DNA from: Oceanisphaera avium
Lineage (GTDB): Bacteria; Pseudomonadota; Gammaproteobacteria; Enterobacterales; Aeromonadaceae
Reading direction: 5' to 3'
NCBI RefSeq assembly: GCF_002157875.1
Contig: NZ_CP021376.1
Location: forward strand, 1,364,001 to 1,428,000
Length of the DNA stretch: 64,000 bases
Shown: positions 32,815 through 47,387 of the stretch, one piece after another
How the letters are laid out: every line of letters starts with the position of its first letter
Numbering within the stretch: position 1 is the first letter of the stretch
Notes under the pieces: model-generated
The model's database searches: none
Told to the model about the DNA's origin: nothing
The model's input: only the letters and a program-made list of their open reading frames with translations
Translations under genes and position numbers: made by a program

Positions 32815-32825
32815 GAGGAGTGAAG

Positions 32826-33236
32826 TTGAGGTATAACATTATACGAAATGGCGGCGTGGCATTATTGCTCGCTGTGCTCGTTATCAGTTTATGTATGAGC
32901 CAGCGGATGGGCTTAAAACTGGCCTGTGCACTTGAGCCGGCGGGGTTCGCTCAAGTGAGCGCAGCTCAGACCATGCCTGCCCCCTTAGCTCTTAAAGAGA
33001 CTCAATTAGCTCAAAAAGAGTCAAACCCTGCGCCAGATCAGCACTCCTGCAGCTTAAGTGAGCAACTATTAAGTAAGGCGTTTCAGCATTTAGACCCATT
33101 ATTTATTGCGATTTTGATGCTGTTTGCGCTGTGGCTAATGGCCCCTGCCACTATTCACTATCAGCGACGTGGCCTCATTCCTTTATTATTTTCTGGTCGA
33201 CGGCGGCATTTAGTGCTGTGCGTGTTCCGAGAATGA
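32826..33236 (+). CDS. Small exported or membrane protein upstream of scsB, unrecognised
   Basis: I choose TTG 32826 because GAGGAG at 32815-32820 is 5 bases upstream; the frame is open back to 32796. The 136-aa product has a hydrophobic N-terminal segment (about residues 8-24), a low-complexity Ala/Gln/Pro stretch, DQHSCSLSEQ with a single Cys near residue 75, a second hydrophobic segment (LFIAILMLFALWLMAP) and a basic RRRHLVLCVFRE tail. Its place directly before scsB suggests an ScsA-like copper or thiol-stress role; that is inference from position. Confidence 0.6.
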   Translation: MRYNIIRNGGVALLLAVLVISLCMSQRMGLKLACALEPAGFAQVSAAQTMPAPLALKETQLAQKESNPAPDQHSCSLSEQLLSKAFQHLDPLFIAILMLFALWLMAPATIHYQRRGLIPLLFSGRRRHLVLCVFRE

Positions 33237-33288
33237 GTAAAAAGTGTCTTTCTTTTTTTACTCATGACTCATATCGGAGATAGTATTT

Positions 33289-34860
33289 GTGAACACACTG
33301 ACTCATTTTTTTACCAAGCTTACGCTTATCTGCCTCATACTAGTGGCTGTCAGCTCAAGCATGGCCTTTGCTGCAGACTTTACCCCTGCATCGTGGCAGC
33401 AAGCACCCGAACACCCCCCAGTAAAAGTGCGCCTTATTCAAGCTGGCCCTTATAACGCGGAGCAAAATTATTACCCCGCACTATTGCAAGTGCGCCTTGA
33501 AGAGGGCTGGAAAACCTATTGGCGCTCCCCAGGAGAAGGCGGCATAGCGCCGCGGCTTAATTGGGATGACTCTAGCAATATAGAAAATATTAATTGGCAG
33601 TGGCCGGTGCCAGAGCGCTTTAGTCTGCTCGGTATTGAAACCCAAGGTTACCAACACGATGTAGACTTTCCGCTACAGCTCACCCCCAGTGATGGCGAGC
33701 AAGCCAGCACTTTTAGCGCCAAGCTAACGCTGCCCAGTTGTACTACTGTGTGTGTGCTTACCGATTATCAATTGCAGTTACCGCTAGACCCTAATATGGC
33801 GGCCGATGACCAGCTTAGTCATGACTATCAACAAGCGGTGGCAAAAGTCCCTCGCCCCGCTACTTTAGTTAGCAGTGAGTCGCTTATTTGGGATAAAGAA
33901 GCTAAACAATTAGCCGTTACCTTGAGCAATGAGCGTGGCTGGCAAACACCCGCCATTTATGTGGATGAACAGGATGAGGCAATCTTTAGCCAACCTGAAT
34001 TTTCCATTAATAAGAACCAGCTTGAAGTGCGCTTTGAAGTGAGTAGCTGGGATGACGAGCTTAATTTAGATAAACAATCCTTAGTGATCACCGCCATTGA
34101 TAACGGACTAGCAGAAGAGCTAGAGGCCGAGGTCAGTGCTGGTACCTTAGCGCCCATGGCTAGCGCCATGCCCTCTTTAGCTTGGGTGTTACTCTATGCT
34201 GTTTTGGGCGGCTTAGTATTAAATATTATGCCCTGCGTGCTTCCGGTATTGGGCCTTAAACTTAATAGCTTGGTATTAGGTAATCGTACTCAGGTGCGCG
34301 CTCCTTTATTGTGGTCAGCGTTTGGCATTATGTTGTCGTTTTGGCTATTAGCCGGCTTTATGCTGATCCTCACTTGGTCTGGCGCGCAATTAGGTTGGGG
34401 CATTCAGTTTCAACAGCCTGCTTTTATCAGCTTTATGCTACTCATTACCGCGCTGTTCTCACTTAATCTATTTGGCCTATTTGAAGTGCGCTTACCCAGC
34501 CGCCTTAATACCTGGCTAGCTACGCGACCCGGGCACGGCAACGGCGGCCATGTTTTACAAGGCATGTTTGCCACCTTATTAGCCACCCCCTGTAGCGCGC
34601 CTTTTTTAGGCACGGCCGTCGCGGTGGCACTGGCGTCTTCACCGCTAGTGCTCATTGCCATCTTTACCGGTTTAGGCTTAGGAATGGCGCTGCCTTGGTT
34701 ATTACTGGCGTTATTTCCAAGCGTTATTCGTGCGCTGCCTAAACCAGGCTTGTGGATGGAAAAAGTAAAATGGCTATTTGGCTTAATGCTACTGGCTACT
34801 AGCTTGTGGTTATTATCCTTACTTAGCTACACCTTAGGCGTGGGGCTAACTTGGGGTTAG
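33289..34860 (+). CDS. scsB: ScsB-type thiol:disulfide interchange protein, N-terminal and membrane part (frameshifted)
   Basis: This frame encodes 523 aa: a signal peptide ending about residue 29, a periplasmic DsbD-alpha-like domain with SCTTVCVL near residue 147, and an eight-helix redox membrane domain with MPCVLPVLG (near residue 313) and TPCSAPFLG (near residue 433). ScsB moves electrons from thioredoxin across the membrane to periplasmic partners. It stops at 34858-34860 just where the last helices should continue; the missing part runs on in the -1 frame from 34851. One extra G in the GGGG run before the stop would restore a single ORF of about 690 codons. Start GTG 33289 has GGAG upstream. 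Confidence 0.8.
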   Translation: MNTLTHFFTKLTLICLILVAVSSSMAFAADFTPASWQQAPEHPPVKVRLIQAGPYNAEQNYYPALLQVRLEEGWKTYWRSPGEGGIAPRLNWDDSSNIENINWQWPVPERFSLLGIETQGYQHDVDFPLQLTPSDGEQASTFSAKLTLPSCTTVCVLTDYQLQLPLDPNMAADDQLSHDYQQAVAKVPRPATLVSSESLIWDKEAKQLAVTLSNERGWQTPAIYVDEQDEAIFSQPEFSINKNQLEVRFEVSSWDDELNLDKQSLVITAIDNGLAEELEAEVSAGTLAPMASAMPSLAWVLLYAVLGGLVLNIMPCVLPVLGLKLNSLVLGNRTQVRAPLLWSAFGIMLSFWLLAGFMLILTWSGAQLGWGIQFQQPAFISFMLLITALFSLNLFGLFEVRLPSRLNTWLATRPGHGNGGHVLQGMFATLLATPCSAPFLGTAVAVALASSPLVLIAIFTGLGLGMALPWLLLALFPSVIRALPKPGLWMEKVKWLFGLMLLATSLWLLSLLSYTLGVGLTWG

Positions 34861-35366
34861 CCAGCTTATTAGTGGCGCTGGCTATTTGGTCTTTGGTGCG
34901 CCAATACGGATTGCGCGGTTTAATTTTTGGTTTTGCCGGTTTGGTATTATTAGGCGCTGTGGGTGGCATAGCAGCTTTCTTTACCCAATCCCATTGGGTA
35001 AGCCCGGTAAAAGATGAGCTTAACTGGCAACCTCTGGATGCGGATCGCATTGCCCAAGAAGTCGCGGCGGGCAAGCGAGTGTTTGTGGATGTGACTGCCG
35101 ATTGGTGTATTACCTGTCAAGCCAACAAGGTAGGCGTGACCTTGCGCGATCCAGTTTACTCGGCACTACAAGATGACGATATAGTCTTGATGCGCGGCGA
35201 TTGGACTCGCCCCGACAGTGCTATTACCGATTATTTGCATGCCAATCACAGAGCCGGCATTCCCTTTAACCAAGTGTTTGGCCCAGGCTTACCCCAAGGC
35301 AAAGACCTAGAAGTCTTGCTCACCACCAACAAGGTGATCAGCGCCTTGGATGAGGCAAAACAATGA
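34851..35366 (+). CDS. scsB: ScsB C-terminal thioredoxin-like part (frameshifted)
   Basis: A 171-aa open frame overlapping the end of the previous one by 10 bases. It supplies the remaining transmembrane segments (LLVALAIWSLVRQYG; GLIFGFAGLVLLGAVGG) and the periplasmic thioredoxin domain with VFVDVTADWCITC near residue 84. Together the two frames make a normal full-length ScsB. Independent initiation at TTG 34851 is possible because GGGG precedes it, but no member of the family that I know is split this way. A 4-base ATGA overlap links it to the next gene. Confidence 0.75.
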   Translation: MGLASLLVALAIWSLVRQYGLRGLIFGFAGLVLLGAVGGIAAFFTQSHWVSPVKDELNWQPLDADRIAQEVAAGKRVFVDVTADWCITCQANKVGVTLRDPVYSALQDDDIVLMRGDWTRPDSAITDYLHANHRAGIPFNQVFGPGLPQGKDLEVLLTTNKVISALDEAKQ

Positions 35367-35866
35367 AGCGCTCACTCGCAGCGCGCATGGCTAAAGGGAT
35401 AGGTTATGTGCTGTTATTACTCGTTATAGTGACGGCGGTAGATGTGTGGCGCAGCCAAGACCTGCCCACCGACGTGGCCGCCCTTGGCCCCCTAACCACC
35501 CTTAAAGGTGATGACATTAACTTAAGCGCATTGAGTGAGCGCCAGCCTGTATTAGTTTACGTATGGGCCAGCTGGTGCGGCGTGTGTCGCATCGTCTCAC
35601 CCATGGTCGATATGGTGCAAACACCGGTAGTCAGCATAGCGCTGGCCTCGGGTCATGACCGCAAGGTAAACGGCTATGTACAGGAAAAAGATTATAAATT
35701 TTCCGTGGTCAACGATGCGGATAATACACTTAGCCAAGTGTTAGGGATTAAAGTCACGCCCACACTCATGATCGCTTATAAAGGGGAGCTACGCTACGCC
35801 ACCTCAGGCATCACCACCCTGCCCGGCATGTGGGGGAGAGTGTGGCTAGCGAAGTTAATGGGATAA
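35363..35866 (+). CDS. scsD: ScsD-like membrane-anchored protein disulfide oxidoreductase
   Basis: A 167-aa protein with one N-terminal transmembrane helix (about residues 12-27) and a TlpA/ResA-type thioredoxin fold carrying VYVWASWCGVC near residues 65-75, a cis-Pro in KVTPTLM and a typical end. In scs clusters it pairs with ScsB. The usual scsC (a DsbC/G-like oxidoreductase) is absent, so electrons from ScsB may go to ScsD directly. Overlap with scsB shows one operon, ended at 35899. Confidence 0.82.
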   Translation: MKRSLAARMAKGIGYVLLLLVIVTAVDVWRSQDLPTDVAALGPLTTLKGDDINLSALSERQPVLVYVWASWCGVCRIVSPMVDMVQTPVVSIALASGHDRKVNGYVQEKDYKFSVVNDADNTLSQVLGIKVTPTLMIAYKGELRYATSGITTLPGMWGRVWLAKLMG

Positions 35867-35898
35867 ATTCGTAGGCTATTAGCTAAACGATATAAACG

Positions 35899-35929
35899 AA
35901 AAGCCGCGCTTATAAAGCGCGGCTTTTTT
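35899..35929 (+). terminator. Intrinsic terminator of the scs operon
   Basis: A 12-bp stem AAAAGCCGCGCT/AGCGCGGCTTTT with loop TATAA and six T residues, 33 bases after scsD. Confidence 0.93.
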
Positions 35930-35949
35930 ATGCCAAGTAACAAGCACGT

Positions 35950-36175
35950 AGCGTTAAACGTAGGTTTGCAGTCACAGCCAGTAGGATTGTCTACGCCAAC
36001 TGGCTCAGCCGACCATCACAGAACAGGAACGAAAAGTGCTTCTACTGGTTCGACACTCCTGCCATCCATGACGGTCGGATGTTATGTGTTTGAGCGTCAT
36101 AGGGATGTACTTGAGCGAGTCAACGGAGGCTACCCAGCGGCCTCGGGGAGAATAAAATTAACGATAAGCCTTTAG
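35950..36175. other. Gene-free structured intergenic stretch
   Basis: No convincing gene lies between the scs terminator and the monooxygenase: the 81-codon open frame here begins inside the terminator and lacks a ribosome site. The stretch has a CATCC-ATGACGGTC-GGATG palindrome near 36061, is GC-richer than ordinary spacers here, and may be a further type of dispersed intergenic element. Confidence 0.45.
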
Positions 36176-36195
36176 TTAATAAACAACTTAAAAAA

Positions 36196-36222
36196 GATCC
36201 TGACTTTTGTCAGGATGACGGC
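36196..36222. repeat. Solo arm of the GCCGTCA-ended repeat family, inverted
   Basis: GATCCTGAC-TTTT-GTCAGGATGACGGC: read on the minus strand it begins GCCGTCATCCTGAC, like the left end of the unit at 2621. The arm is a 9-bp-stem hairpin. It looks like a fragment of the dispersed repeat family. Confidence 0.6.
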
Positions 36223-36330
36223 CTAAGATCATTAGCCAGTAAAATCTCTATTTCTCTCCCTACCTTATCTAAAAGCAATGAAAGTGCTGGTGACTGCCTT
36301 ATAATCAGCAGCGCATTGTCGGTATTTTTT

Positions 36331-36458
36331 ATGAGGGCAGTCCCATCACCGTATCTAATGAAGTAGCAGCCGCGCCTGAGAGTGCGTATTTATCAAGCTG
36401 GGCGCCTTGTGCTAAGTGCGGCGGGCGTGGGCGGATCAGTCAAAAGATCCGTAAAAAA
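36331..36458 (+). other. Upstream coding extension of the monooxygenase (zinc-knuckle module) without a clean start
   Basis: The monooxygenase frame is open back to 36294. From about 36369 it reads APESAYLSSWAPCAKCGGRG..., a CxxCGGxG zinc knuckle that pairs with CPNCEGTG at 36547-36570 in the called ORF. No ATG, GTG or TTG lies in this frame between 36294 and 36459. An ATG at 36331 is followed at once by matching residues (G-S-P-I-T-V) only if one base is added in the AGGG after it. So the real start is probably 36331 with a single-base frameshift, or a rare ATT/ATC start. Confidence 0.6.
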
Positions 36459-37817
36459 GTGCGGCTCAGTTACCAAGCGGCGGTGGTGCACTTTGAAAAA
36501 CATGGTGGGCCAATACCACTGCGCCCTAAAGCACACCTTTCTTCTTGCCCAAATTGTGAAGGCACTGGTTTGATCGCCGCCGCACAGCCGCCGCTACCAG
36601 ATAGTGACCACTATCCTAATGTGGCCATTATTGGTGGCGGCATAGGCGGTGTCGCATTAGCGGTGGCGTGCTTGCACCGCGGTATTCCATTTACGCTGTA
36701 TGAACGTGATGAGAATTTTTCGGCGCGCGCTCAAGGCTATGGCTTAACTTTGCAACAAGCCAGCAAGGCGATTGCCGGCTTAGGTATTACTGCACTAGCG
36801 GAAGGCTTGGTCTCTACTCGCCATGTGGTGCATAACACAGAGGGTAAAGTATTAGGCGAATGGGGTATGCGCAAGTGGCTACACTCTGATGCCAGCGCGG
36901 CGCCTAAACGAACTAATGTGCATATTGCGCGCCAAGCGCTGCGCTTAGCCTTACTTGAGCAGTTAACTCAGCATGCGAGTCATTGCATTAAATGGGGACA
37001 TCAGTTGGTGGACTTAACCCTCAGCGCAAGCGGGGCAGAGCTTGAATTTAACGTCCAAGGACGCACTGAAAAAGCCCACGCAGAGTTAGTGGTGGGCGCC
37101 GATGGCATTAGAAGTGCGGTACGCCACTTAACTCTTGACCAATCCAGTGACTCGCTGCGCTATTTAGACTGCATTGCCATTTTAGGCATCTGCCCCTTAA
37201 GTGCCCTGCACAATGTTGAGAGTGATTTATTAGACTCGGCAACGGTGTTTCAAACCGCTAACGGTACTGAGCGCATTTATATTATGCCCTTTAATGCGCA
37301 TTCTGTGATGTGGCAATTAAGCTTCCCGTTATCAGGAGAGGCCGCTAAAGCCTTAAGTGCTCAAGGTGCTGAAGCACTTAAATTAGAAGCTTGCCGACGT
37401 ACTCAGTGGCACTCACCCATCCCTGAGATTTTAGCCGCGACACCCACAGACTTAATTTCTGGATATCCGGTTTATGATCGCGAGCTACTGGCAGCAGATT
37501 CTTTAGCTCACGCTGGCGCCATTACTTTATTAGGGGATGCCGCGCATCCCATGAGTCCCTTTAAGGGCCAAGGTGCTAACCAAGCGCTACTGGATGCCCT
37601 CGCATTAGCGCGCACTATTGTTAGACAGTGTCGGCCACAATCAAATTGGCGCCAACAAGGAATTAGAGCGCGGGTACTCACTGAATTTGAAGCCGAGATG
37701 CTAGCGCGCAGTGCCGTTAAAGTGAGAGAGTCGGCAGAAGCGGCGGTCTTTTTACACTCAGATGTAGTGTTGCATGAAAGCGATGAGCCCAGAGGCCGCT
37801 GCTTAAAAGAAAGCTAA
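36459..37817 (+). CDS. FAD-dependent monooxygenase with N-terminal zinc-knuckle module
   Basis: Called from GTG 36459 as 452 aa, although coding clearly begins earlier. Residues 30-37 contain CPNCEGTG, the second half of a DnaJ-like zinc module; the FAD fold follows with VAIIGGGIGGVALAVACLHRGIPFTLYERD near residue 50, LVVGADGIRSAVR near residue 210 and GDAAHPMSPFKGQGANQAL near residue 360. This is the PHBH/salicylate-hydroxylase class of flavin hydroxylases; the substrate is unknown. It has no operon partner and no terminator. The fused zinc module suggests a specialised partner or substrate protein. Confidence 0.82.
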   Translation: MRLSYQAAVVHFEKHGGPIPLRPKAHLSSCPNCEGTGLIAAAQPPLPDSDHYPNVAIIGGGIGGVALAVACLHRGIPFTLYERDENFSARAQGYGLTLQQASKAIAGLGITALAEGLVSTRHVVHNTEGKVLGEWGMRKWLHSDASAAPKRTNVHIARQALRLALLEQLTQHASHCIKWGHQLVDLTLSASGAELEFNVQGRTEKAHAELVVGADGIRSAVRHLTLDQSSDSLRYLDCIAILGICPLSALHNVESDLLDSATVFQTANGTERIYIMPFNAHSVMWQLSFPLSGEAAKALSAQGAEALKLEACRRTQWHSPIPEILAATPTDLISGYPVYDRELLAADSLAHAGAITLLGDAAHPMSPFKGQGANQALLDALALARTIVRQCRPQSNWRQQGIRARVLTEFEAEMLARSAVKVRESAEAAVFLHSDVVLHESDEPRGRCLKES

Positions 37818-37926
37818 GCCATCAATATCACCCTTCATCACTGCCCCTCACTCCTTAACCAGACCGGCGCTAACAAGTGAGTTATTTTGACTATACTGAC
37901 GGAGCACTTTTTATTTAGGAGGCAGT

Positions 37927-38148
37927 ATGACGGATAAGTTTAAGGTGGGTGATCATGTTTCTTGGAACTCAGAAGCGGGCCATGTGAGTGGCGTGATTAG
38001 CAAAGTTCACACTCAAGATTTTCAATATAAAGGTCATACTCATAGAGCGTCTAAAGACGAACCGCAGTATGAAATTAAAAGTGATAAAACTGATCATATC
38101 GCCGCGCACAAAGGCAGCGCCTTAAAGAAAACGGCTAAAAAATCTTAA
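37927..38148 (+). CDS. DUF2945 (hypervirulence-associated TUDOR domain) protein
   Basis: A 73-aa basic protein beginning KFKVGDHVSWNSEAGHVSGVI, then YEIKSDKTDHIAAHKGSALKK: the compact SH3/TUDOR-like DUF2945 fold found widely in bacteria and fungi. Function is unknown. ATG 37927 follows AGGAGG, one of the best ribosome sites in the window, suggesting high expression. It stands alone with its own terminator. Confidence 0.88.
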   Translation: MTDKFKVGDHVSWNSEAGHVSGVISKVHTQDFQYKGHTHRASKDEPQYEIKSDKTDHIAAHKGSALKKTAKKS

Positions 38149-38165
38149 TCCCTCTTCATAAAGCT

Positions 38166-38209
38166 CGCCTAAAGATAAGCAGTTCGCTTGCTTATCTTTA
38201 GGCGTTTTT
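38166..38209 (+). terminator. Intrinsic terminator of the DUF2945 gene
   Basis: A 15-bp stem CGCCTAAAGATAAGC/GCTTATCTTTAGGCG around loop AGTTCGCTT, followed by five T residues. Confidence 0.92.
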
Positions 38210-38240
38210 ATCTCATCTTACTTTTATCCTTCCTAGACCT

Positions 38241-38261
38241 TTATACCCAAATGGGTATAAT
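38241..38261 (+). promoter_or_regulatory. Palindromic promoter element upstream of the TPP riboswitch
   Basis: TTATACCCA-AA-TGGGTATAA is a near-perfect 20-bp palindrome whose right arm runs into TATAAT (38256-38261), a consensus -10 box located 30 bases before the riboswitch. The -35 region (CTAGAC at 38233) is poor, which would fit an activator- or repressor-controlled promoter. Confidence 0.55.
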
Positions 38262-38290
38262 GCGGCTCGACTTATAACCTTAAGTCATAT

Positions 38291-38377
38291 CCTAAGGGGT
38301 GGCAGGAAGTTACTGCCTGAGATGCGCCCGACGCGAACCCTTTGCACCTGATCCGGCTAATACCGGCGTAGGAATAG
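38291..38377 (+). promoter_or_regulatory. TPP riboswitch (THI element)
   Basis: The conserved THI-box parts are present in order: AGGGGTG near 38295, CTGAGATG near 38337 region start (CTGCCTGAGATGCGCCC), ACCCTTTGCACCTGATCCGG at about 38337-38356, and TAATACCGGCGTAGGAA at 38358-38374. The last segment overlaps AGGAAG, the ribosome site of a 24-codon leader ORF, which suggests translational control: thiamine pyrophosphate binding would shut off expression downstream. Confidence 0.95.
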
Positions 38378-38386
38378 GAAGTTGCA

Positions 38387-38461
38387 ATGCTTAAGCCTGC
38401 CCTCACCTGCCTGCTCTCGACGTTACCCGGTTTTCGTATTTACCTTCATGCGGAGACTTAA
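38387..38461 (+). CDS. 24-codon leader ORF between TPP riboswitch and receptor gene
   Basis: ATG 38387, 4 bases after an AGGAAG that abuts the riboswitch, encodes a 24-aa peptide beginning MLKPALTCLLSTLPG and stops at 38461, one base before the receptor ATG at 38463. Translation of this ORF would carry ribosomes onto the receptor start, coupling riboswitch control to it. There is no evidence that the peptide itself has a function. Confidence 0.45.
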   Translation: MLKPALTCLLSTLPGFRIYLHAET

Positions 38462-38462
38462 T

Positions 38463-40523
38463 ATGCCCCATCCCCCTTTTTTACCCTCAGTAATATCTTC
38501 AGCTGTGGCTCTTGGCTTAGTATCTATTGCGCCCAGTCTTTTAGCCGATGAAATTTACACATTAGAGACCACCACAGTGGCCGCCAGCTCTGAGCAAGCG
38601 CTCTTGCAAGAAAGTGTGGCCAGTGTCAGCGTTATTGAGGAAGAGCGTTTATCTCAGCCTGGCACCACCCACCTTGAAGAGGTGGTTAGCCAAACGCCAA
38701 ATGTGAACTTAAGTGCCGGTGCTTCACGGGGCAAGTATTATCAAATTCGAGGCATAGGTGAGCGTAGTCAGTTTACCGACACCGTTAACCCCTCGGTTGC
38801 GGTAGTGATGGATGGCATCGATATGAGCGCCATGACCATGGGCGCAACGCTGCTTGATGCAAAGCAAGTGGAAGTATTGCGTGGCCCGCAAGGCAGCCTA
38901 CAAGGAGCTAGTGCTATTGGCGGACTAATTAATGTACGCGCCAATGAGCCTACGGATTATGTCACTGGCGACTTGGAGCTCACCGTTGCGCAGTACAATA
39001 CGCAAAATTTATCTGGCGCCATAGGTGGGCCTATCAGTGATAAAGTCAGCTATCGATTTGCCGCTCAGCGCAATTCCAGTGATGGCTTTATAAAAAATGA
39101 TTACTTAAACCGCGATGACACCAACAACATAGATGAAACCTTGTTGCGCACTAAGTTTCACATTGCCGCCAGCGATAATCTAGATCTAGACTTAAGCGCC
39201 TTTTACGCCAATATTGATAACGGCTACGATGCGTTTACGCTAGATCAAACTCGCCACACTATCTCCGATCAACCCGGTCATGACCGTCAAGAAACTCTCG
39301 CCCTCGTCGGCAAAAGCAGCTGGTATGGCAACCGTCACTTTATTCAAGAAACTGCGCTCAGCATCAGCAAAAGTAACCTTGAATATGGCTACGACGTAGA
39401 CTGGACTAACCCCGATTTTCAGCCAGTAGGCGCAAAAAACAGAACTGATAATTATAGCCGCGATGAGAAAAGTGCCACCTTGGATCTGCGCTTTATCTCT
39501 AGCGAAGAGTCGCGCTTGTTTAACGACAGCACTGGCTGGAGCGGCGGATTATATTATTTTTATCGCAATTCAGATCTCATTCGCGATTATACGGGTGAGC
39601 CGGTATTTACCAGTGAATATGAGACCGACCGCTATGCAGGCTACGGCGAGCTGTCCACAGACTTAACCGATAAACTTACTTGGATTAATGGCGTACGTCT
39701 TGAGCAAGACACCACGCTTTATAGTGATAATACCGGTGAATACAGTAAGCCTACCGAGTATTTATGGGGTGGACGCACGGCACTGGAATATCAAACCAGC
39801 GACAGCCAAATGCTTTATGGTTTAATTGCCCGCGGTTATAAAGTAGGCGGTTATAATGCCAATATTAAATTGCCAAATGAATTGCGAAAATATGACTCAG
39901 AAACACTGTGGAACTTTGAATTAGGTGCCAAGCACAGATTATTAGAGGACACCTTACACACTCAATTAGCGGTATTTGTGCAACAGCGTGATGATGCCCA
40001 AGTGAACGCCACCCGCACCGAACAAGGTGTGGCATTTGATTATACCGATAACGCTAATAAAGCTTATAGCTATGGTCTAGAAGCCCAAGCCCAGTGGCAA
40101 GCCACTCACGCCGTGCGCTTACATGCCAGCGTTGGTTTATTAAAAACTGAGCTAAAAGAACCCGGTGCCAGCTTTGATGGCCGCGGTGCGGCACACTCGC
40201 CAGAATATCAATTTGCTTTGGGCGCCAGTTTTGATCATGGTAAAGGCTGGTTCTCAGGTCTTGATATAGAGGGCAAAGACCGCTTCTATTTCTCTGATAG
40301 CTACGACTCCACCACCCAAGCCTATGCGCTGGTCAACGCCCGCTTTGGCTATCAGCAAGATAACTGGAGCGTGACGTTATGGGGCAAAAACCTCACCGAC
40401 CAAGACATTATCGTGCGTGGTTTTAACTTCCCTAATAACCCCTATACGCCTACGGTGGCCGAAGATTATGTGCAGTTTGGCGCGCCGCGTATGTTTGGCA
40501 TTACCACTAAATATTCATTCTAA
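38463..40523 (+). CDS. TonB-dependent outer-membrane receptor under a TPP riboswitch
   Basis: From ATG 38463 (GGAG at 38452-38455) the product is 686 aa: signal peptide ending near residue 28, a TonB-box-like LETTTVAAS, a plug domain (about 45-155) with PNVNLSAGASRGKYYQIRGIG and VEVLRGPQGSLQGASAIGGLINV, then a 22-strand type barrel ending in the outer-membrane signature KYSF. The riboswitch points to uptake of thiamine, its phosphates or a pyrimidine/thiazole precursor. No inner-membrane partner is adjacent. The frame is open to 38382, but that extension has no signal sequence. Confidence 0.9.
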   Translation: MPHPPFLPSVISSAVALGLVSIAPSLLADEIYTLETTTVAASSEQALLQESVASVSVIEEERLSQPGTTHLEEVVSQTPNVNLSAGASRGKYYQIRGIGERSQFTDTVNPSVAVVMDGIDMSAMTMGATLLDAKQVEVLRGPQGSLQGASAIGGLINVRANEPTDYVTGDLELTVAQYNTQNLSGAIGGPISDKVSYRFAAQRNSSDGFIKNDYLNRDDTNNIDETLLRTKFHIAASDNLDLDLSAFYANIDNGYDAFTLDQTRHTISDQPGHDRQETLALVGKSSWYGNRHFIQETALSISKSNLEYGYDVDWTNPDFQPVGAKNRTDNYSRDEKSATLDLRFISSEESRLFNDSTGWSGGLYYFYRNSDLIRDYTGEPVFTSEYETDRYAGYGELSTDLTDKLTWINGVRLEQDTTLYSDNTGEYSKPTEYLWGGRTALEYQTSDSQMLYGLIARGYKVGGYNANIKLPNELRKYDSETLWNFELGAKHRLLEDTLHTQLAVFVQQRDDAQVNATRTEQGVAFDYTDNANKAYSYGLEAQAQWQATHAVRLHASVGLLKTELKEPGASFDGRGAAHSPEYQFALGASFDHGKGWFSGLDIEGKDRFYFSDSYDSTTQAYALVNARFGYQQDNWSVTLWGKNLTDQDIIVRGFNFPNNPYTPTVAEDYVQFGAPRMFGITTKYSF

Positions 40524-40548
40524 GTTAGCAGTTTAAAAAACGCTTACG

Positions 40549-40576
40549 AAAAAGCCGCATGTTACGCGGCTTTTTT
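40549..40576 (+). terminator. Intrinsic terminator of the TonB receptor gene
   Basis: AAAAAGCCGC and GCGGCTTTTTT form a stem around an ATGTTAC loop, ending in T residues. It lies between the receptor and the convergent OsmC-family gene, and may serve both. Confidence 0.85.
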
Positions 40577-40597
40577 ATTGTGCTAATCAGCTTATCG

Positions 40598-41038
40598 CTA
40601 TTCACGTACCACACCAGCCAGCGTTAGGTTAACGCCTTGGCTTAAACTATCACCCACCGGGCACTTAGTGCCAATAAAAGCGATAAAGTCATCCACCGCC
40701 TGCTCAGGCGAGGATGACTTTATATGATAGGTGTAGCGAATATCGCTAAAGCCACAGCGCACCTCGGCTTTATTCATAAAGCCATCGGGATCTAAGTCCC
40801 CTTCAAGCTCTACCCAAAACTCATCCAGCTCAACGTTAAACATTGGGGCATAACTGCGTGCCACTATCGCTTGGCAGGCACCTAAAGCACCGAGCAGCGC
40901 CTCTACTGGGTTCATGGCCGTATCTGTACCGCCTAGTTCTGGCGGCTCATCTAGGCTAAATTCAAAACCGCGGGCTTTCACTTTGACTAGAGTGCCCGCT
41001 TGTAGATCGGCGCGGGCGCTAAATTGTTCAACCGCCAT
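40598..41038 (-). CDS. OsmC family protein
   Basis: A 146-aa protein from ATG 41038, which has AAAGGAA 6 bases upstream. It has the OsmC/Ohr fold: PPELGGTDTAMNPVEALLGALGACQAIVARSYA with the peroxidatic-type Cys near residue 50, and a second Cys in FIGTKCPVGDSL near residue 127. Members reduce organic hydroperoxides with lipoyl or dihydrolipoamide thiols; this one belongs to the YhfA/OsmC branch and not clearly to Ohr. Single gene. Confidence 0.86.
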   Translation of the reverse strand: MAVEQFSARADLQAGTLVKVKARGFEFSLDEPPELGGTDTAMNPVEALLGALGACQAIVARSYAPMFNVELDEFWVELEGDLDPDGFMNKAEVRCGFSDIRYTYHIKSSSPEQAVDDFIAFIGTKCPVGDSLSQGVNLTLAGVVRE

Positions 41039-41146
41039 GTCAGTTCCTTTCAATTATTAATAATCTGTGCGCCATACGTCTTACGCTAAAGGCCTTACGT
41101 TAACGACAAACACAGTCTGGTATAAACGGCTCGCGTACACATGCAT

Positions 41147-41575
41147 TTAAAACAGTACGCGCCGCCCTTTCATGCACTCCCGACACACGGGCTCGCCTTG
41201 CATAGAGCCCAAGACTTCAGGCGCACAGCGGCTGCCACAAAAGCTGCATTCATGAAATGATTTTAAGCGCAGCGCTATGGTCTCTTCTACTAGAGCCAGT
41301 AATTGCTCTAGGGTGCCGTCATGAGAGGAAATCACTCCTTGGGAGCGCGGCTTAGCAGTATGAATATCATGATGGCGCCATTGAATAGCCGGAAAAAACA
41401 CCTCTACCTGATCATGTTGAAATGCCACTATGACCAGCGTGGGCTCACCAATAAATAACGTTTGTGCGCCTTGTACGGGATAAGGCAGCTGACTTTTAAG
41501 ATGCTGACGCCAGGTTTCTAAATTTTCAGGCAACGGCATCGCCAGTAATAAGGCGTCCAACAATCGGGATGGCAT
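41147..41575 (-). CDS. Unrecognised protein with C-terminal C4 zinc finger
   Basis: From ATG 41575, preceded by AGAGAGG at good spacing, this is a 142-aa protein (the frame is open 15 codons further). The N-terminal two thirds is mixed alpha/beta (LFIGEPTLVIVAFQHDQVEVFFPAIQW); the C-terminus has CSFCGSRC near residue 109 and CREC near residue 132, arranged as a C4 zinc finger like that of ClpX. I do not recognise the family; a DNA- or protein-binding adaptor role would be a guess. Confidence 0.7.
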   Translation of the reverse strand: MPSRLLDALLLAMPLPENLETWRQHLKSQLPYPVQGAQTLFIGEPTLVIVAFQHDQVEVFFPAIQWRHHDIHTAKPRSQGVISSHDGTLEQLLALVEETIALRLKSFHECSFCGSRCAPEVLGSMQGEPVCRECMKGRRVLF

Positions 41576-41642
41576 ATAATCCTCTCTGTAGCCAAAATGG
41601 GCATTAGCCCACTCAGCCATTAAACATGTTAAGCGCAGATAA

Positions 41643-41663
41643 TTAACGCCCTAAAGGGCGTTA
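41643..41663 (-). terminator. Hairpin after proA
   Basis: TTAACGCCC-TAAA-GGGCGTTAA forms a perfect 9-bp stem, 4 bases past the proA stop on the minus strand. The downstream minus-strand sequence (TTATCTG) has no long U-tract, so termination may be partial. A matching hairpin ends the nqr operon near 51116. Confidence 0.55.
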
Positions 41664-41666
41664 ACA

Positions 41667-42923
41667 TTAGTCGCGAATTAAATAATCCGCTTGGCCAACC
41701 CACTTATAACTGGTCAGCTCTTCTAAGCCCATGGGTCCACGGGCGTGCAGTTTTTGGGTAGAGACCGCCACTTCTGCACCTAAGCCAAACTGAGCGCCAT
41801 CGGTAAAACGCGTGGAGGCATTAACATAGACAGCGGCCGAAGGCGTACCGTTAATAAAACGCTCGGCGCTTAGGATATCGTTAGTTAAAATAGCATCAGA
41901 GTGATTAGCGTTATGGGCTCGCAAATGCGCTAAGGCGGCCTCAACATCGCTTACCACTTTCACACCCAACGTTAAGCTTAACCACTCGGTATCAAAATCC
42001 CCCTCAGCGGCGGCGCGTACCTTGGCAGGTCCGGCTTTTAATAAAGCCAGAGCCGCACTATCCGCCACTAATTCCACGCCCTTTTCTGCCATGCGCACAC
42101 TCACGCCCGCTAACAGAGGCTCGGCTACTGCTTGATGCACTAATAAAGTATCAATGGTATTACACACACTGGGGCGCTGAGTTTTAGCGTTATCAATCAC
42201 CTCAATGGCACGCACCAAATCGGCACTGGCATCCACAAACATGTGGCCAATGCCAAAGCCACCAATAATGACCGGTATGGTGGCTTGTTCTTTACATAAT
42301 TTATGTAAATTAGCGCCGCCTCGAGGAATAATCATATCTACATATTGATCAAGCTGCAGTAAGCCGCTGACCCACTCCCGACCTGGCTCACTAATGTATT
42401 GCACCGCCGCTTGCGGCAATTGGCTACTTGCTAGCGCTTGCTGGATCACTTTAACTAATTCTTGGTTGGTATGAAAAGTCTCACGCCCGCCGCGTAAAAT
42501 ACTGGCGTTGCCAGTTTTTAAACATAAAGCGGCAATGTCGATAGTGACATTGGGGCGTGCTTCATAAATAACACCCACCACTCCCAGTGGCACACGGCGA
42601 CGGGATAAGCGCATGCCATTTTCTAATACGCGGCTATCAAGCTCAGCCCCCACCGGATCGGCTAACGACACCACATTACGCACATCTTGAGCAATGGCTT
42701 TTAAGCGCGCTGAGTTAAGCGTAAGTCGGTCTAGCATGGCCTCATCAAGGCCATTGTCTCGAGCTGTGGTTAAGTCACGCTCATTAGCCGCCAAAATAGC
42801 GCTGCTTGAGGCTTCCAGTGCATCGGCCATGGCTAATAAGGCGTTATTTTTAGTACGCGTTGAGCTTTGAGCCAACACATAGGCGGCATCACGGGCAGCT
42901 TGCCCCATTTGTTGCAAATTCAT
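41667..42923 (-). CDS. proA: Glutamate-5-semialdehyde dehydrogenase (gamma-glutamyl phosphate reductase)
   Basis: ProA reduces gamma-glutamyl phosphate to the semialdehyde in proline synthesis. The 418-aa protein matches the family (E. coli 417) with [18 protein letters not shown] near residue 110, [11 protein letters not shown] near residue 198 and the catalytic Cys in [13 protein letters not shown] near residue 255. It follows proB after 62 bases, so the two form one operon on the minus strand, as in E. coli. Confidence 0.97.
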
Positions 42924-42985
42924 GGTTACTCCTAGGCGGTCAACACGGATAGTGGAAAGTAAAAATATAAAAGCCTAAGACTGGC

Positions 42986-44089
42986 TTAAAGCAACACCAA
43001 GTCATCTCTATGAATGGCCACACTGCCGTGGCCATAACCAAGTAATGACTCAATTTGCTCAGAGTGTTGACCTTTAATGTGGTTAAGCTCTAGGGCATCG
43101 TAGCGGCAAATGCCCCGCGCCAGCTCTCGCCCTTCAGGGTTCACAATGCGCACCGCTTCGCCGCGGCGAAACTTACCTTCAATGCGCACTATGCCTTTTG
43201 GCAATAAGCTGGAGCCTTTTTCTAATACCGCCGTCACCGCTCCCGCATCAATATGAATTTCTCCGTGGGGCGGTGGGCCGGCTAAAATCCAGCGTTTGCG
43301 ACTTTCAAGAGGCGTGGCAAGAGCGGGAAACAAGGTACCAATACGCTCGCCTTTGGCTAAACGACCAATCACTTCTGGCACTTGACCGGTGGCAATCACC
43401 ACATTAATACCCGCCCGGCGCGCCACATCGGCCGCTTGTAATTTAGTGGCCATACCGCCGGTGCCCAAACCGCCAATACTGCCGCCTGCTAATTTTCGCA
43501 AAGTATCATCGATGGTTTGTACTTCTTCAATGAGTTGCGCTTTAGGGTCAAAGCGCGGATCAGCGGTAAATAAGCCTTTTTGATCGGTCAGTAGTACCAA
43601 AAGATCGGCGTTGGCTAAAATAGCGGCGCGAGCCGATAAGTTATCATTATCGCCGACTTTAATTTCATTGGTCGCCACCGCGTCGTTTTCATTGATAACG
43701 GGGATAATACGATTATCTAATAAGGCGCGTAGCGTATCGCGCGCATTTAAGTAGCGCTCTCTGTCTTCAAGATCGGCGCGGGTGAGCAAAATTTGCCCCA
43801 CATGCAGGCCGTACAAGTTAAATAATGACTGCCAAGTTTGAATAAGCTGGGTTTGGCCAACCGCTGCCAGCATTTGCTTGTTAGCCATGGTATTGGCGAG
43901 CTCAGGAAAACCTAAATGCTCGCGCCCAGCAGCAATGGCCGCCGAGGTCACCACAATAATATGATGCCCTGCGCGGTGTAAGCTGGCGCATTGGCGCACC
44001 AGTTCGACCATATGGGCTCTGTCTAAATAACGAGTGCCACCGGTGAGCACACTGGTGCCTAATTTTACAACTATGGTTTTGCCTTTCAT
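42986..44089 (-). CDS. proB: Glutamate 5-kinase
   Basis: ProB phosphorylates glutamate in the first, feedback-inhibited step of proline synthesis. The 367-aa protein has the amino-acid kinase domain ([12 protein letters not shown] at residues 7-18, [21 protein letters not shown] near 149-169, [12 protein letters not shown] near 213) and a C-terminal PUA domain (about 275-350). Length equals E. coli ProB. A GAGCC-containing ribosome region precedes ATG 44089. Confidence 0.97.
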
Positions 44090-44120
44090 GGAACGCCCAC
44101 CGGCTCCTTACTAACAGCAA

Positions 44121-44140
44121 TGCCGGCAACGCTGCCGGCA
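44121..44140. repeat. Small perfect hairpin upstream of proB
   Basis: TGCCGGCA-ACGC-TGCCGGCA is a direct and inverted repeat of a GCCGGC palindrome, about 30 bases before the proB start. It lies in the 5' untranslated region of proBA and could affect translation. Confidence 0.5.
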
Positions 44141-44172
44141 ACATAATAAACTAAGACGCATCCAGGCAAATC

Positions 44173-44208
44173 AAACTGACTTAAACAAAGGAGTTTAAGC
44201 CAGTTTTT
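44173..44208. terminator. Terminator of crl (bidirectional-looking)
   Basis: AAACTGACTTAAAC and GTTTAAGCCAGTTT pair with one mismatch around loop AAAGGA. It lies right after the crl stop on the minus strand, where TTTGATTT follows the stem; the plus strand has TTTTT. Confidence 0.65.
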
Positions 44209-44210
44209 GC

Positions 44211-44609
44211 TTAGGCTGGGCTTAACAAGTGATCGTTACCTAATTTTACGCAGGGGCGCACTGAGAGTGCTAAATTATCCATGCAAACACCGAGTTTATC
44301 GTAAAAATCTCGTAAAGTACGGGCCACTTCTGCTTGATGTTTTTTAGGTATGGCTTTGGGCTGCCAGTCGCCTTGGATATCAAAAAGCCCCAATTCATAA
44401 TTAAATTCAAAGTGTTGCCCATCTTGGCTATCCAGTGTTAACCACCAGCCCCAAAATTCTCGTACCTCGGGCTCGGCTTTGGCACTGACACACACGGCCA
44501 AGCAATCAAAAAAATACTGGCCTTCACGGGATTTAAGCACGCGAAAATAAGGACCAATAGCGGTTAGCTCGCGAACCAATTTATGATGAGAAACTTTTTC
44601 TATAGACAT
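44211..44609 (-). CDS. crl: Sigma factor-binding protein Crl
   Basis: Crl binds sigma-S and helps it assemble with core RNA polymerase in stationary phase. The 132-aa protein shows the conserved core YFFDCLAVCVSAKAEPEVREFWGWW (near residues 28-52) and FNYELGLFDIQGDW. Length matches E. coli Crl (133). The gpt-crl-proBA neighbourhood is shared with E. coli (where frsA and phoE also lie here). It implies that this organism has an RpoS response. Confidence 0.93.
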   Translation of the reverse strand: MSIEKVSHHKLVRELTAIGPYFRVLKSREGQYFFDCLAVCVSAKAEPEVREFWGWWLTLDSQDGQHFEFNYELGLFDIQGDWQPKAIPKKHQAEVARTLRDFYDKLGVCMDNLALSVRPCVKLGNDHLLSPA

Positions 44610-44827
44610 GTCACCTCCTTGTTAACTTATCCATATGTACCGTTTTTTATGCTATGGGTAAAGGTCATAACCGACAGTTACTAAAAAACGCGAGTAAATC
44701 TTAACATGCTGTGACCCAACACAGCTAGCAAGGCTCAGTGACTTTATCTCGTGCTTTCCCCTATTGGCTTTTTAATGGTGGAAAATGAGCCCTCCCGCTC
44801 ACTTCGCCTCCCCTAAAGAGCGGCCAC

Positions 44828-44855
44828 AAATAAGGCTCCCTCAGGAGCCTTATTT
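44828..44855 (-). terminator. Terminator of gpt
   Basis: A perfect 12-bp stem AAATAAGGCTCC/GGAGCCTTATTT with loop CTCA lies 45 bases past the gpt stop. On the minus strand it ends in a TTATTTGT run. Confidence 0.75.
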
Positions 44856-44900
44856 CAGTGGGCGCGGCGTCTCATTTACGCTCACCTAGATAATAAATAC

Positions 44901-45365
44901 TTAGTCTTGGTCACATAAAGGAGTCGCAAATACCACCCCCATATCCCAAGGTTGTTCAATCCAAGTATCTTGACTTACGCGCACTTCAAAATCATCCACT
45001 AGCGGCTCGCCTTTAGGCTTAGCAAATACGGTGATAAATTTTGCTTTAGGGTACATTTCACGAATAACGCGTGCGGTGTTGCCGGTGTCTACTAAATCGT
45101 CAACAATCAAAAAACCTTCACCGTCACCTTGTGCAGGCTTCAAGACTTGCAGATCAGCACGCTGCTGATTGTGATCATAGCTGGCAATACACAGCGTATC
45201 TACGTGGCGAATACCCAGTTCGCGCGCCAAAATAGCGGCGGGAACTAAGCCTCCACGAGAGACGGCAATAATGCCTTTCCACTGGCTGGCAGGAAGTTGG
45301 CGGGCGGCCAGTTTACGCGTTTCACGCTGAAATGAGTCCCAAGTAACGACGAATTTGTTGGACAT
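44901..45365 (-). CDS. gpt: Xanthine-guanine phosphoribosyltransferase
   Basis: Gpt salvages xanthine and guanine with PRPP. From ATG 45365 (AAAGG 7 bases upstream) it is 154 aa, close to E. coli (152): [44 protein letters not shown], the PRPP loop [14 protein letters not shown] near residue 84 and [15 protein letters not shown]. The frame is open a further 89 codons upstream, but that part has no similarity and no start with a ribosome site. Confidence 0.96.
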
Positions 45366-45752
45366 AAAAAAACCTTTGGCTGTGAGCTTCGAGATAAGGT
45401 GGTCACCGCTGCTGGATTGACGCTTCAAACTAACCGTTACCGGCCAGTTTTTGTCAGACAATGAGCAAACAATGGCCGCATTATAGAGATCCCACTCTTT
45501 CTTGACCAGAGCTACAGTTTTTATTAACCAAACTTTTCTATCTGGCTCTACCAAGCGCCAAATCTTTGCGCGCGAAGCTAAGCCCGCTACGACTAAAGTA
45601 CCAGCCGGATAGCTCACACATTCTACATCCACCTCTTACACCTACTTAAAGTGTGGATTATGCTGCAGCCTCTTTCTTACCCAGTAAAAAACCTGCCTCT
45701 AAGCACACGTGAATGAATGGAATATTCTTAACAACACAAAAGGAATACCGAC
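45366..45752. other. Divergent intergenic region gpt / chemoreceptor
   Basis: 387 bases carrying promoters for gpt (minus) and the chemoreceptor (plus). The open minus-strand frame contiguous with gpt looks non-coding. No riboswitch, tRNA or repeat was recognised. Confidence 0.4.
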
Positions 45753-47387
45753 ATGACTTGGTTGCGCTCACTGTCAATTGCTAAACGACTTTATTTAAAC
45801 TTACTGGTATTACTTAGCGGCTTAGTGCTGATTGTTGCTTTTATGCTGGGCTTATTTTATCAAAGCTTAATGAGCGAAAAACACACTCAAGCTCAGCGCC
45901 AAGTGGAGTCGGTGCTCAGCTTAGTTAATCATTATTACCAACAGCAACAAAGCGGCGAGCTCAGTGAAGCTCAAGCACAACACCAAGCATTAGCCAGTAT
46001 CGCTCAGCTGCGTTATGGCGATAATGATTACTTTTGGGTCAATGATGCTAAGCCCACAATGATATTGCACCCGCTCAACCAACAGCTTAATGGCCAAGAC
46101 CTTAGTACACTAACCGATCCTAGCGGCAAAGCACTGTTTATAGAAATGGCCACCCTAGTGAGTCGCCAAGGGCAAGGTTTTGTCGATTACTTATGGCCTA
46201 AGCCGGGCTTTGCTAATCCGGTGCCTAAGGTGTCTTATGTACAAGGCTTTTCGCCGTGGGGTTGGATAATAGGCACAGGTATTTATGTCGATGACGTTAA
46301 TACTCAGCTATGGGCTATGGCTAACCAGGTATTTTTAATCGCCGTTAGCTTAGCGCTGCTGGCCATTGCTATCGCTTATGTCTTAATTCGTAGCATTATT
46401 AGACCTATGTCCGACACTGTATTGGCACTGCATGACATTGCCCATGGCGAGGCAGATTTAACCCAGCGTTTAAATGAACAAGGCCGCGATGAAGTGACTT
46501 TGCTAAGTCAAAATTTTAATGCGTTTTGTAGTCGCTTAGCACAAACGGTGCGCAAACTCTCACCCATTAGCAGCGAAATGAACACCGCCGCCGCACATTT
46601 AGCCGATATTGCCCGCCATAACCGCGATGCTTCTGAGCAGCAAGTCCATGAAACAGAACAAGTAGCTACGGCCATGAATCAAATGACCGCCTCCAGCCAA
46701 GAAGTGGCACAAGCGGCAGAGCAAGCCGCCGCAGCCAGTCAAAGCTCGGCGCAAGCGGCGCGAGATGGCAGCGCTAAGGTGGAGCTAACCTGTCAAGAGT
46801 CGGCCAGCTTGGTGACTAAGCTGGCTCATAATCAACAAGGCATCGAAGCCCTCGCCGCACGGGCGCAACAAATTGGCAGCATACTAGAAGTGATCCGTGC
46901 CATTGCCGAGCAAACTAACTTGCTTGCACTTAATGCCGCTATTGAAGCCGCTCGCGCGGGAGAGCAAGGTCGAGGGTTTGCAGTAGTGGCTGATGAAGTT
47001 AGAAACTTGGCCACTCGTACTCAAAGTTCCACCGATGAAGTAGAAACTATTATTCAAGGGTTACAGAAAGAGGCCAATCACACGGTATTGCAAATGAGTG
47101 AGCTGATGCAAAGCGCTACTCAAACCCAAGAAACAGCAAACCAAGCCGGCAGCGCGTTACGCGCTATTAGTGAGGGCATGGCATTAATTAATGATATGAA
47201 TAGCCATATCGCCACCGCCGCCGAGCAGCAACGCCAAACCACCGCCGATATTAGCCGTAACTTAAATAGGCTCAGTGAGTTGGCCGATGCCGCGCGCCTT
47301 AAAACCCAAGAAACAGAGCAAGCCAGTACCACTTTATCGGGCTTAGGAGGGCGGTTAACCAGTGAGATGAATACCTTTGTAGTGTAA
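45753..47387 (+). CDS. Methyl-accepting chemotaxis protein with Cache sensor
   Basis: A 544-aa transmembrane chemoreceptor. TM1 spans about residues 12-33; the periplasmic sensor (about 36-185) is of the single Cache (sCache_2) type, with [11 protein letters not shown] and [19 protein letters not shown] motifs (here [17 protein letters not shown]); TM2 about 190-212; HAMP about 212-265; then the coiled-coil signalling domain with the hairpin tip [20 protein letters not shown] near residue 388. Such Cache domains often bind small carboxylates. It has no C-terminal CheR-tethering pentapeptide. Ligand unknown; monocistronic. Confidence 0.92.

What the first reader, a model, noticed from the sequence alone, without database searches (positions are those of the whole stretch)
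38241..40523. TPP riboswitch controls a lone TonB-dependent receptor: predicted thiamine-family outer-membrane transporter
Seen: a complete THI element 90-170 bases before a 686-aa TonB-dependent receptor, with no thi biosynthesis or ABC-transporter genes beside it. Known: TPP riboswitches control thiamine synthesis and uptake genes, and TonB receptors have been predicted as thiamine transporters in other bacteria on this basis. Inferred: the receptor takes up thiamine, its phosphates or a breakdown product, which would matter in a marine setting where B1 is scarce.
Basis: partly seen in the sequence, partly recalled or inferred. Interest (0 to 1): 0.7.

Follow-up and report, generated by a model that had tools for sequence, protein, structure and literature searches.

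The report
Vitamin B1 receptor under riboswitch control
An outer-membrane receptor gene in an Oceanisphaera-type bacterium stands behind an RNA switch that senses vitamin B1, and its relatives in other bacteria mostly sit beside vitamin B1 import genes, so it most likely pulls vitamin B1 into the cell; receptors of this kind have been predicted before, but what they carry has rarely been tested.

Summary
A full TPP riboswitch (38285-38391, 83.7 bits, cut-off 54.3) precedes a 686-aa TonB-dependent receptor (38463-40523) that stands alone. Of 37 homologues with a testable upstream, 36 have a TPP riboswitch there. In 26 of 28 testable relatives outside the genus a PnuT-type inner-membrane transporter gene follows, in 19 with a YkoF-like thiamine-binding protein and in 17 with a ThiK-like kinase in the stretch read. 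The genus copies are nested inside that set, so they look like the outer-membrane part of this operon without its partners. The genome has ThiB and a ThiK-like gene elsewhere; no PnuC/PnuT, no ThiM beyond a ThiD-domain hit, no thiH, and no ThiO over its cut-off, although thiC-thiDE-thiF-thiS-thiG is kept. The leader is predicted to hide the ribosome site in an 11-bp hairpin when the aptamer is folded. Such receptors (omr1, OMthi) are known; Bacteroides OMthi has mutant evidence. Verdict: new member of a known kind. Substrate not proven.

The parts
38166..38204 (+). terminator-like hairpin that closes the upstream unit
   Evidence: 17-pair stem followed by a T run (5 terminator-like sites found in the region against 2.9 in shuffles)
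38234..38261 (+). sigma-70-type promoter-like site, TAGACC-16-TATAAT
   Evidence: 10 of 12 consensus matches (4 found in the region against 3.6 in shuffles, so the scan alone is weak); a TATAAT and a similar CGACTTATAAC stretch recur in most relatives' leaders
38285..38391 (+). TPP riboswitch aptamer (THI element, RF00059)
   Evidence: 83.7 bits, model 1-105
38348..38437 (+). candidate antisequestor: aptamer bases 38348-38379 pairing with linker bases 38405-38437 in place of the aptamer fold and the hairpin
   Evidence: same core pairing (CCGG with CCGG) in 8 of 8 genus leaders, but clearly beyond shuffled linkers only in two
38429..38458 (+). 11-bp hairpin that hides the ribosome site
   Evidence: SD pairing probability 0.99-1.0 on the linker alone in 6 of 8 genus leaders
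38452..38456 (+). Shine-Dalgarno GGAGA
   Evidence: invariant in 8 of 8 genus leaders
38463..40523 (+). TonB-dependent outer-membrane receptor, 686 aa, predicted thiamine receptor (omr1/OMthi kind)
   Evidence: Pfam PF07715 and PF00593, clade, model
40549..40575 (+). terminator-like inverted repeat AAAAAGCCGC...GCGGCTTTTT after the receptor gene
   Evidence: read from the sequence by eye; not listed by the scan

Best explanation
This is a single-gene unit for an outer-membrane, TonB-driven receptor that takes up thiamine, possibly also its phosphate esters. When cell TPP is high, TPP holds the aptamer folded; the linker then forms a hairpin over the ribosome site and translation stops. When TPP is low, part of the aptamer pairs with the linker, the ribosome site is free and the receptor is made. 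Thiamine brought into the periplasm would be taken by ThiB and the ThiBPQ importer, phosphorylated by a ThiK-like kinase and then by ThiL to TPP. In most relatives outside the genus the same receptor is followed by a PnuT-type gene, often with a YkoF-like protein and a ThiK-like kinase; in this genus the receptor stands without them. Shown by sequence: riboswitch, gene, clade, gene order in relatives, ThiB and a ThiK-like gene in this genome. Inferred: substrate, direction and level of control, use of ThiBPQ. Assumed without a test: ThiP, ThiQ, ThiL, TonB and ExbBD.
For: Aptamer well over threshold. TPP element just upstream in 8 of 8 genus genes, in 9 of 9 named relatives with at least 37% identity and in 19 of 20 testable genomes of a class sample. 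PnuT-type gene downstream in 8 of 8 testable named relatives and 18 of 20 testable sample genomes; YkoF-like protein in 3 of 8 and 16 of 20; ThiK-like kinase in 7 of 8 and 10 of 20 (profiles for representatives). The clade has 100/100 support and excludes seven K-12 receptors and the distant hits L034-L037, two of which carry cobalamin riboswitches instead. This genome has ThiB at 427.6 bits, cut-off 317.15, and a ThiK-like gene in the lpoB-thiK-nagZ order of E. coli K-12. SD hairpin in 6 of 8 leaders; in the other two a different hairpin takes the start codon. Bacteroides OMthi, a TPP-riboswitch TonB receptor, raises the thiamine need of a biosynthesis mutant when deleted (EC50 2.8 to 15.8 nM; PMC5613172, passages).
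Against: No substrate or expression data. Nearest solved structure by sequence and by Foldseek is a siderophore receptor, and VIA-align gives near-tied Z for many TonB receptors, so fold says nothing about cargo. The ThiK-like gene scores 108.6 bits, below the model cut-off of 299.45, and the lpoB beside it is also below its cut-off. The genome's thiB has no TPP riboswitch, so receptor and presumed inner-membrane partner are not co-regulated by one. One clade member, L068, has neither TPP nor PnuT in the stretch read, and L055 has TPP but no PnuT there. In Bacteroides the TPP-riboswitch transport operons showed no significant change with thiamine, and deletion of OMthi alone had no effect. The hairpin stem is invariant among the six leaders, so covariation cannot test it; the whole-leader minimum fold lacks it in one of the six and, for the window, in the slightly longer stretch; the antisequestor is no better than shuffles in six of eight leaders.
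Confidence: 0.8

Rival explanations
1. The receptor takes up a thiamine precursor or breakdown product (HMP, FAMP, a thiazole) rather than thiamine itself.
For: TPP riboswitches also sit on precursor transporters such as ThiV (PMC11452348, passages), and this genome has a TPP-controlled sodium:solute symporter (that it is ThiV-like is my guess, no ThiV sequence was compared). YkoF is listed as B1/HMP-binding (PMC10881298, passages). thiH is missing, so a thiazole source would be useful.
Against: No ThiM-type thiazole kinase was found: of two PF02110 hits one (27.1 bits, cut-off 27) lies in the ThiD part of thiDE and the other is under the cut-off, in a 532-aa frame. thiC is kept, so HMP can presumably be made. 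The kinases beside the receptor in relatives resemble thiamine kinase (below the model cut-off), which acts on intact thiamine (E. coli annotation).
Confidence: 0.13
2. It is a siderophore or other metal-chelate receptor that happens to stand behind a TPP riboswitch.
For: TIGR01783 TonB-siderophor is the best NCBIfam match (144.5 bits) and FyuA the best solved structure.
Against: 144.5 bits is below the family cut-off of 223.5; 36 of 37 testable homologues have the TPP element and 26 of 28 testable wider relatives have PnuT; the clade is apart from FepA, CirA, FhuA, FhuE, FecA, BtuB and PqqU, though several of those are long branches.
Confidence: 0.04
3. The receptor gene is kept but drifting: its partners are gone in this genus and it has little function left (not exclusive of the others).
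For: Patchy: 7 of 23 genus genomes have it; two riboswitch leaders of this type stand without a receptor.
Against: All eight genus ORFs are open; the seven others are 65-83% identical to the window protein; leaders are conserved; one genome holds a tandem pair, each with its own riboswitch.
Confidence: 0.05

Closest known systems
OMthi (BT2390) of Bacteroides thetaiotaomicron
   Same: TonB-dependent outer-membrane receptor under a TPP riboswitch; in that species split from pnuT; mutant evidence for thiamine uptake (PMC5613172, passages)
   Different: Other phylum; no sequence comparison could be made here; works with PnuT and Tnr3, while this genome has no PnuC/PnuT hit but has ThiB
omr1 of marine bacterioplankton
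   Same: TonB-dependent putative B1 transporter, reported near TDP riboswitches in two SAR86 and two Flavobacteriales clusters (PMC10881298, passages); drawn as a transporter of unclear specificity in PMC12442306 (passages)
   Different: The reference sequence used in the field (Q26GT5 in PMC10470507, passages) was not at hand, so kinship by sequence is untested
TPP riboswitch RF00059
   Same: Full-length aptamer over the gathering score
   Different: Nothing unusual seen in the aptamer; the linker is a predicted SD-hiding hairpin
FyuA yersiniabactin receptor (PDB 4epa)
   Same: Nearest solved structure (Foldseek TM 0.80 by query, 21% identity)
   Different: Siderophore receptor; no thiamine link known to me

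Membership tests
TPP-riboswitch-linked thiamine TonB receptor (omr1/OMthi kind) | TPP riboswitch just upstream | tested here: met
   83.7 bits, 72-178 bases before the start
TPP-riboswitch-linked thiamine TonB receptor (omr1/OMthi kind) | TonB plug and beta-barrel, whole receptor | tested here: met
   PF07715, PF00593; model
TPP-riboswitch-linked thiamine TonB receptor (omr1/OMthi kind) | shares a clade with receptors encoded beside PnuT | tested here: met
   100/100 clade of 33 rows; sister at 98/95 to Marinobacterium L025, which has TPP-receptor-YkoF-PnuT
TPP-riboswitch-linked thiamine TonB receptor (omr1/OMthi kind) | pnuT next to it (common, not defining: split in B. thetaiotaomicron) | tested here: not met
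   nothing thiamine-related follows in the window; no PnuC/PnuT in the genome
TPP-riboswitch-linked thiamine TonB receptor (omr1/OMthi kind) | sequence kinship to BT2390 or Q26GT5 | not tested
TPP-riboswitch-linked thiamine TonB receptor (omr1/OMthi kind) | needed for thiamine uptake at low thiamine | not testable with these tools
   needs mutants or binding assays
TPP riboswitch RF00059 | score over curated gathering score across the whole model | tested here: met
TPP riboswitch RF00059 | binds TPP and controls expression | not testable with these tools
   needs probing or reporter
BtuB vitamin B12 receptor (TIGR01779) | score over curated cut-off | tested here: not met
   56.8 bits, cut-off 599.7; BtuB groups with the cobalamin-riboswitch receptors L036/L037 instead
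TonB-dependent siderophore receptor (TIGR01783) | score over curated cut-off | tested here: not met
   144.5 bits, cut-off 223.5
FyuA-type receptor | branches with FyuA | not tested
   FyuA was not fetched or put in the tree; 91 bits by phmmer, 212.2 bits by profile

The most novel reading that the evidence does not exclude
In this genus the receptor has been cut out of an ancestral TPP-receptor-(ykoF)-pnuT-kinase operon and rewired to ThiBPQ and a stand-alone ThiK, and it goes with loss of thiH: the strains that lost the thiazole step keep thiF, thiS and thiG but live on imported thiamine, or make thiazole with an unknown substitute for ThiH/ThiO.
Probability: 0.35. Interest if true: 0.5.

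Novelty: new member of a known kind. Interest (0 to 1): 0.42.

Why it matters
Omr1-type receptors are counted in marine B1 studies, yet they are drawn as transporters of unclear specificity (PMC12442306, passages). No mutant test of one from Proteobacteria showed in the listings and passages I saw (searches; open-licence papers only). The recurring order TPP-receptor-(YkoF)-PnuT-(kinase) in Gammaproteobacteria and, without YkoF, in PS1/OCS116 Alphaproteobacteria gives a firm list of family members. The partnerless genus copies, four of seven bearers being without thiH, offer a simple one-gene test of what such a receptor carries.

Tried and rejected
Leader peptide: the window has a 24-codon ORF (38388-38461) that starts in the 3' end of the aptamer match and stops one base before the receptor ATG; six of the seven other genus leaders have no ATG there (AACGC where the window reads AATGC; only G056 keeps it), so it was dropped.

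Alternative start: an in-frame ATG at 38448 would add five residues, but it lies in the hairpin arm, and L021/L022 have no such start.

ThiO as substitute for thiH: the best own hit to TIGR02352 is 119.8 bits, cut-off 250.8, and that protein is a D-amino acid dehydrogenase (653.1 bits, NF001933). 0 of 23 genus genomes pass the ThiO cut-off. Two further own hits (L041, L042) were not classified, so a substitute is not excluded.

Rho-type control: the linker is C-rich and G-poor in six of eight leaders, compatible with a rut site, but nothing tests it.

PnuT remnant in G056 (L087 934-1353): Pfam 21.6 bits, below its cut-off of 27.3, and no BLAST similarity to the L026 PnuT; not claimed.

Receptor against thiH loss: 4 of 5 thiH-less and 3 of 18 thiH-bearing genomes have the receptor, Fisher p 0.017; counting the G049 leader as a lost receptor gives 5 of 5, p 0.0017, but that choice was made after seeing the data, and the genomes are related, so neither p is a true probability. 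Three receptor-bearing genomes (G042, G055, G059) do have thiH.

Breadth: the named-genome scan used only two peptide patterns and the class search kept E <= 1e-60 in 369 genomes, so neither is a census.

Tree: rows dropped were L023 and L024 (identical to L019 and L020), L032, L061, L067 (cut by contig ends), L069 and L071 (same genes as L072 and L070), and L028 and L029 (missed by the script's start rule). The tool warned of long branches (FecA, FhuE, PqqU, L035, FhuA, L068) and of uneven composition, so the placing of those rows is unsure.

Papers looked into by passages and not used further: PMC9870897, PMC5955585, PMC6977713, PMC5955497, PMC12637900, PMC12236431.
Full report
OBSERVATION. 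The Rfam TPP model matches 38285-38391 (+) along its whole length at 83.7 bits against a gathering score of 54.3. The receptor runs from ATG 38463 to 40523, 686 aa, with TonB plug and barrel domains over their cut-offs. A terminator-like hairpin (38166-38204) and a promoter-like site (38234-38261) lie before it, and a terminator-like repeat after it (40549-40575, read by eye), so the gene looks like a unit of its own. I saw no thi gene among the ORFs listed for 30000-48000 (by eye).

WHERE IT COMES FROM. The genome is one 2.90-Mb contig. Two same-genus genomes were found under public names: one contig (L019, identical to L023) belongs to Candidatus Oceanisphaera merdipullorum and another (L020, identical to L024) to an unnamed Aeromonadales bacterium. 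I therefore call the genus Oceanisphaera-type.

THE TPP SET OF THIS GENOME. Five sites: the receptor; thiC-thiDE-thiF-thiS-thiG; a second thiD; a sodium:solute symporter; and a short-chain dehydrogenase followed by an NtaA/DmoA-type FMN monooxygenase. The 23 genus genomes hold 91 sites over the cut-off: thiC 23, thiD 19, symporter 18, dehydrogenase 18, receptor 8, thiB 3, and two with no recognised target (tallied from the listing; thiB).

CONSERVATION OF THE PAIR. In the family search (E <= 1e-60) the receptor is found in 7 of 75 genomes, all in the window's genus (7 of 23), with a tandem pair in one. All eight genes have the TPP element just upstream. A scan of named genomes gave 15 loci: two are the genus records above; nine (L025-L033, best segments 37-48% identical: Marinobacterium, Arenicella, a gammaproteobacterium, and Alphaproteobacteria of the PS1/OCS116 kind) all have TPP upstream; four distant ones (L034-L037, 25-27%) do not, and two of those carry cobalamin riboswitches. 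In a sample of 369 genomes of the class, 21 besides the own have the receptor; TPP is upstream in 19 of the 20 whose upstream is present; L067 is cut by its contig and L068, the weakest match at whole-gene length, has none. Together 36 of 37: 32 of the 33 rows of the tree clade, and L028, L029, L032 and L061, which were not in the tree. Some named and sample genomes may be the same species, which was not checked, and the PS1/OCS116 loci are close kin, so these are not 37 independent cases.

NEIGHBOURS. Outside the genus a PnuC/PnuT-type gene follows the receptor in 8 of 8 testable named loci and 18 of 20 testable sample genomes (not L055, L068; L032 and L061 are cut); a YkoF-like protein in 3 of 8 and 16 of 20; a ThiK-like kinase in 7 of 8 and 10 of 20, the sample loci ending about 1.5 kb behind the receptor (BLAST). 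Profiles support the names for representatives: PF04973 in three loci and TIGR01528 in two of them for PnuT; PF07615 for the L027 YkoF, while the L026 one has no Pfam hit; TIGR02721 below its cut-off for the L029 kinase. None of these genes was found in the genus loci, of which L020 ends 0.4 kb downstream. In the tree the eight genus copies form one group (100/100), sister to Marinobacterium L025 (98/95), inside the clade whose other members are mostly PnuT-linked. The simplest reading is that the genus inherited or acquired the operon and lost all but the receptor.

THE REST OF THE PATHWAY HERE. ThiB is present at 427.6 bits (cut-off 317.15) without a TPP element; three other genus genomes do have TPP on thiB. 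A ThiK-like gene lies between an lpoB-like gene and nagZ, as in E. coli K-12, but it and the lpoB-like gene score below their model cut-offs. No PnuC/PnuT and no ThiM (one hit at 27.1 bits, cut-off 27, is the ThiD domain of thiDE) were found. ThiP, ThiQ, ThiL, TonB and ExbBD were not searched. thiH is over its cut-off in 18 of 23 genus genomes and missing in five, the window's among them (two of the five, G048 and G056, are 93% and 91% complete); in all five thiC, thiDE, thiF, thiS and thiG are there and no thiH follows thiG, but in G051 thiDE lies in two frames in this assembly. ThiO is over its cut-off in none of 23. So this strain may need thiamine, or may use an unknown source of dehydroglycine; keeping thiF, thiS and thiG argues for the second.

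LEADERS WITHOUT A RECEPTOR. G049 (no receptor, no thiH) has a TPP site with no recognised gene behind it, and G056 has a second site before a 139-aa ORF. Both leaders align better to all eight receptor leaders than to all 15 other leaders tried, of 81 others. They look like remains of lost receptor genes.

HOW THE SWITCH MAY WORK. With the aptamer enforced, the linker forms an 11-bp hairpin (38429-38458) that covers the ribosome site 38452-38456. On the linker alone the same hairpin is predicted in six of eight genus leaders with pairing probability 0.99-1.0; it shows in the whole-leader minimum fold of five of these six; in the two most distant leaders a different hairpin takes the start codon. 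If the ribosome site is held open, the best fold pairs aptamer bases 38348-38379 with linker bases 38405-38437, at -45.3 kcal/mol against -38.6 for aptamer plus hairpin without ligand energy; the free minimum of that stretch, -52.5, is a third fold, so the numbers only show that two such states are possible. The core of the pairing is the same in all eight leaders but beats shuffled linkers clearly only in two (4 of 200 shuffles reach it in each; 30 to 44 of 200 in the other six). Translational repression by TPP is thus a prediction.

LITERATURE. Papers were seen as passages only. Thiamin TonB transporters predicted from PnuT neighbours, 'remains to be proven': PMC2771747. OMthi mutants in Bacteroides: PMC5613172. 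A TonB receptor-like protein in a TPP-controlled Variovorax operon: PMC10409787. omr1 near TDP riboswitches in SAR86 and Flavobacteriales: PMC10881298. omr1 transcription in the Baltic, also in Cellvibrionales, specificity unclear: PMC12442306. omr1 in a table of putative transporters: PMC10470507. ThiV: PMC11452348. The original prediction paper (Rodionov 2002) is known to me only from reference lists and recall. A search for Oceanisphaera with thiamin listed three papers, judged by title and start of abstract to be on other matters.

VERDICT. Observation confirmed, interpretation supported, kind known. The gain is a firmer family definition and the partnerless form in this genus.

Noticed in passing
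L007 11316-13568 (own genome C1:2251315-2253567): TPP riboswitch before a short-chain dehydrogenase (NF006393) and an NtaA/DmoA-type FMN monooxygenase; TPP-dehydrogenase in 18 of 23 genus genomes, the monooxygenase seen behind it in the four where I read on (own, G048, G049, G051). Its role in thiamine metabolism is unknown to me.
   Followed up: partly
L084 387-488 (G049): TPP riboswitch of receptor-leader type with no recognised gene behind it, apparently left after loss of the receptor.
   Followed up: yes
L087 706-1353 (G056): Second TPP leader of receptor type, followed by a 139-aa ORF with sub-threshold similarity to both PnuC and an unrelated oxygenase family.
   Followed up: partly
L008 6885-12126 and L081, L083, L086, L089: thiH missing after thiG in five genomes while thiC, thiDE, thiF, thiS and thiG stay; no ThiO over cut-off; in one of them (G051) thiDE lies in two frames.
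   Followed up: partly
L017 4759-9454 (G051): Tandem pair of receptor genes, each with its own TPP riboswitch.
   Followed up: partly
window 36459-37817: FAD-binding monooxygenase with a CxxCxG-type motif in its N-terminal part (judged by eye), also beside the receptor in L017, L018 and L019.
   Followed up: no
L139, L140, L141: thiB carries a TPP riboswitch in three genus genomes (G041, G044, G060) that lack the receptor, but not in the window's genome.
   Followed up: partly
window 5940-6711: Cluster of six tRNA genes, Met-Gln-Gln-Met-Leu-Gln.
   Followed up: no
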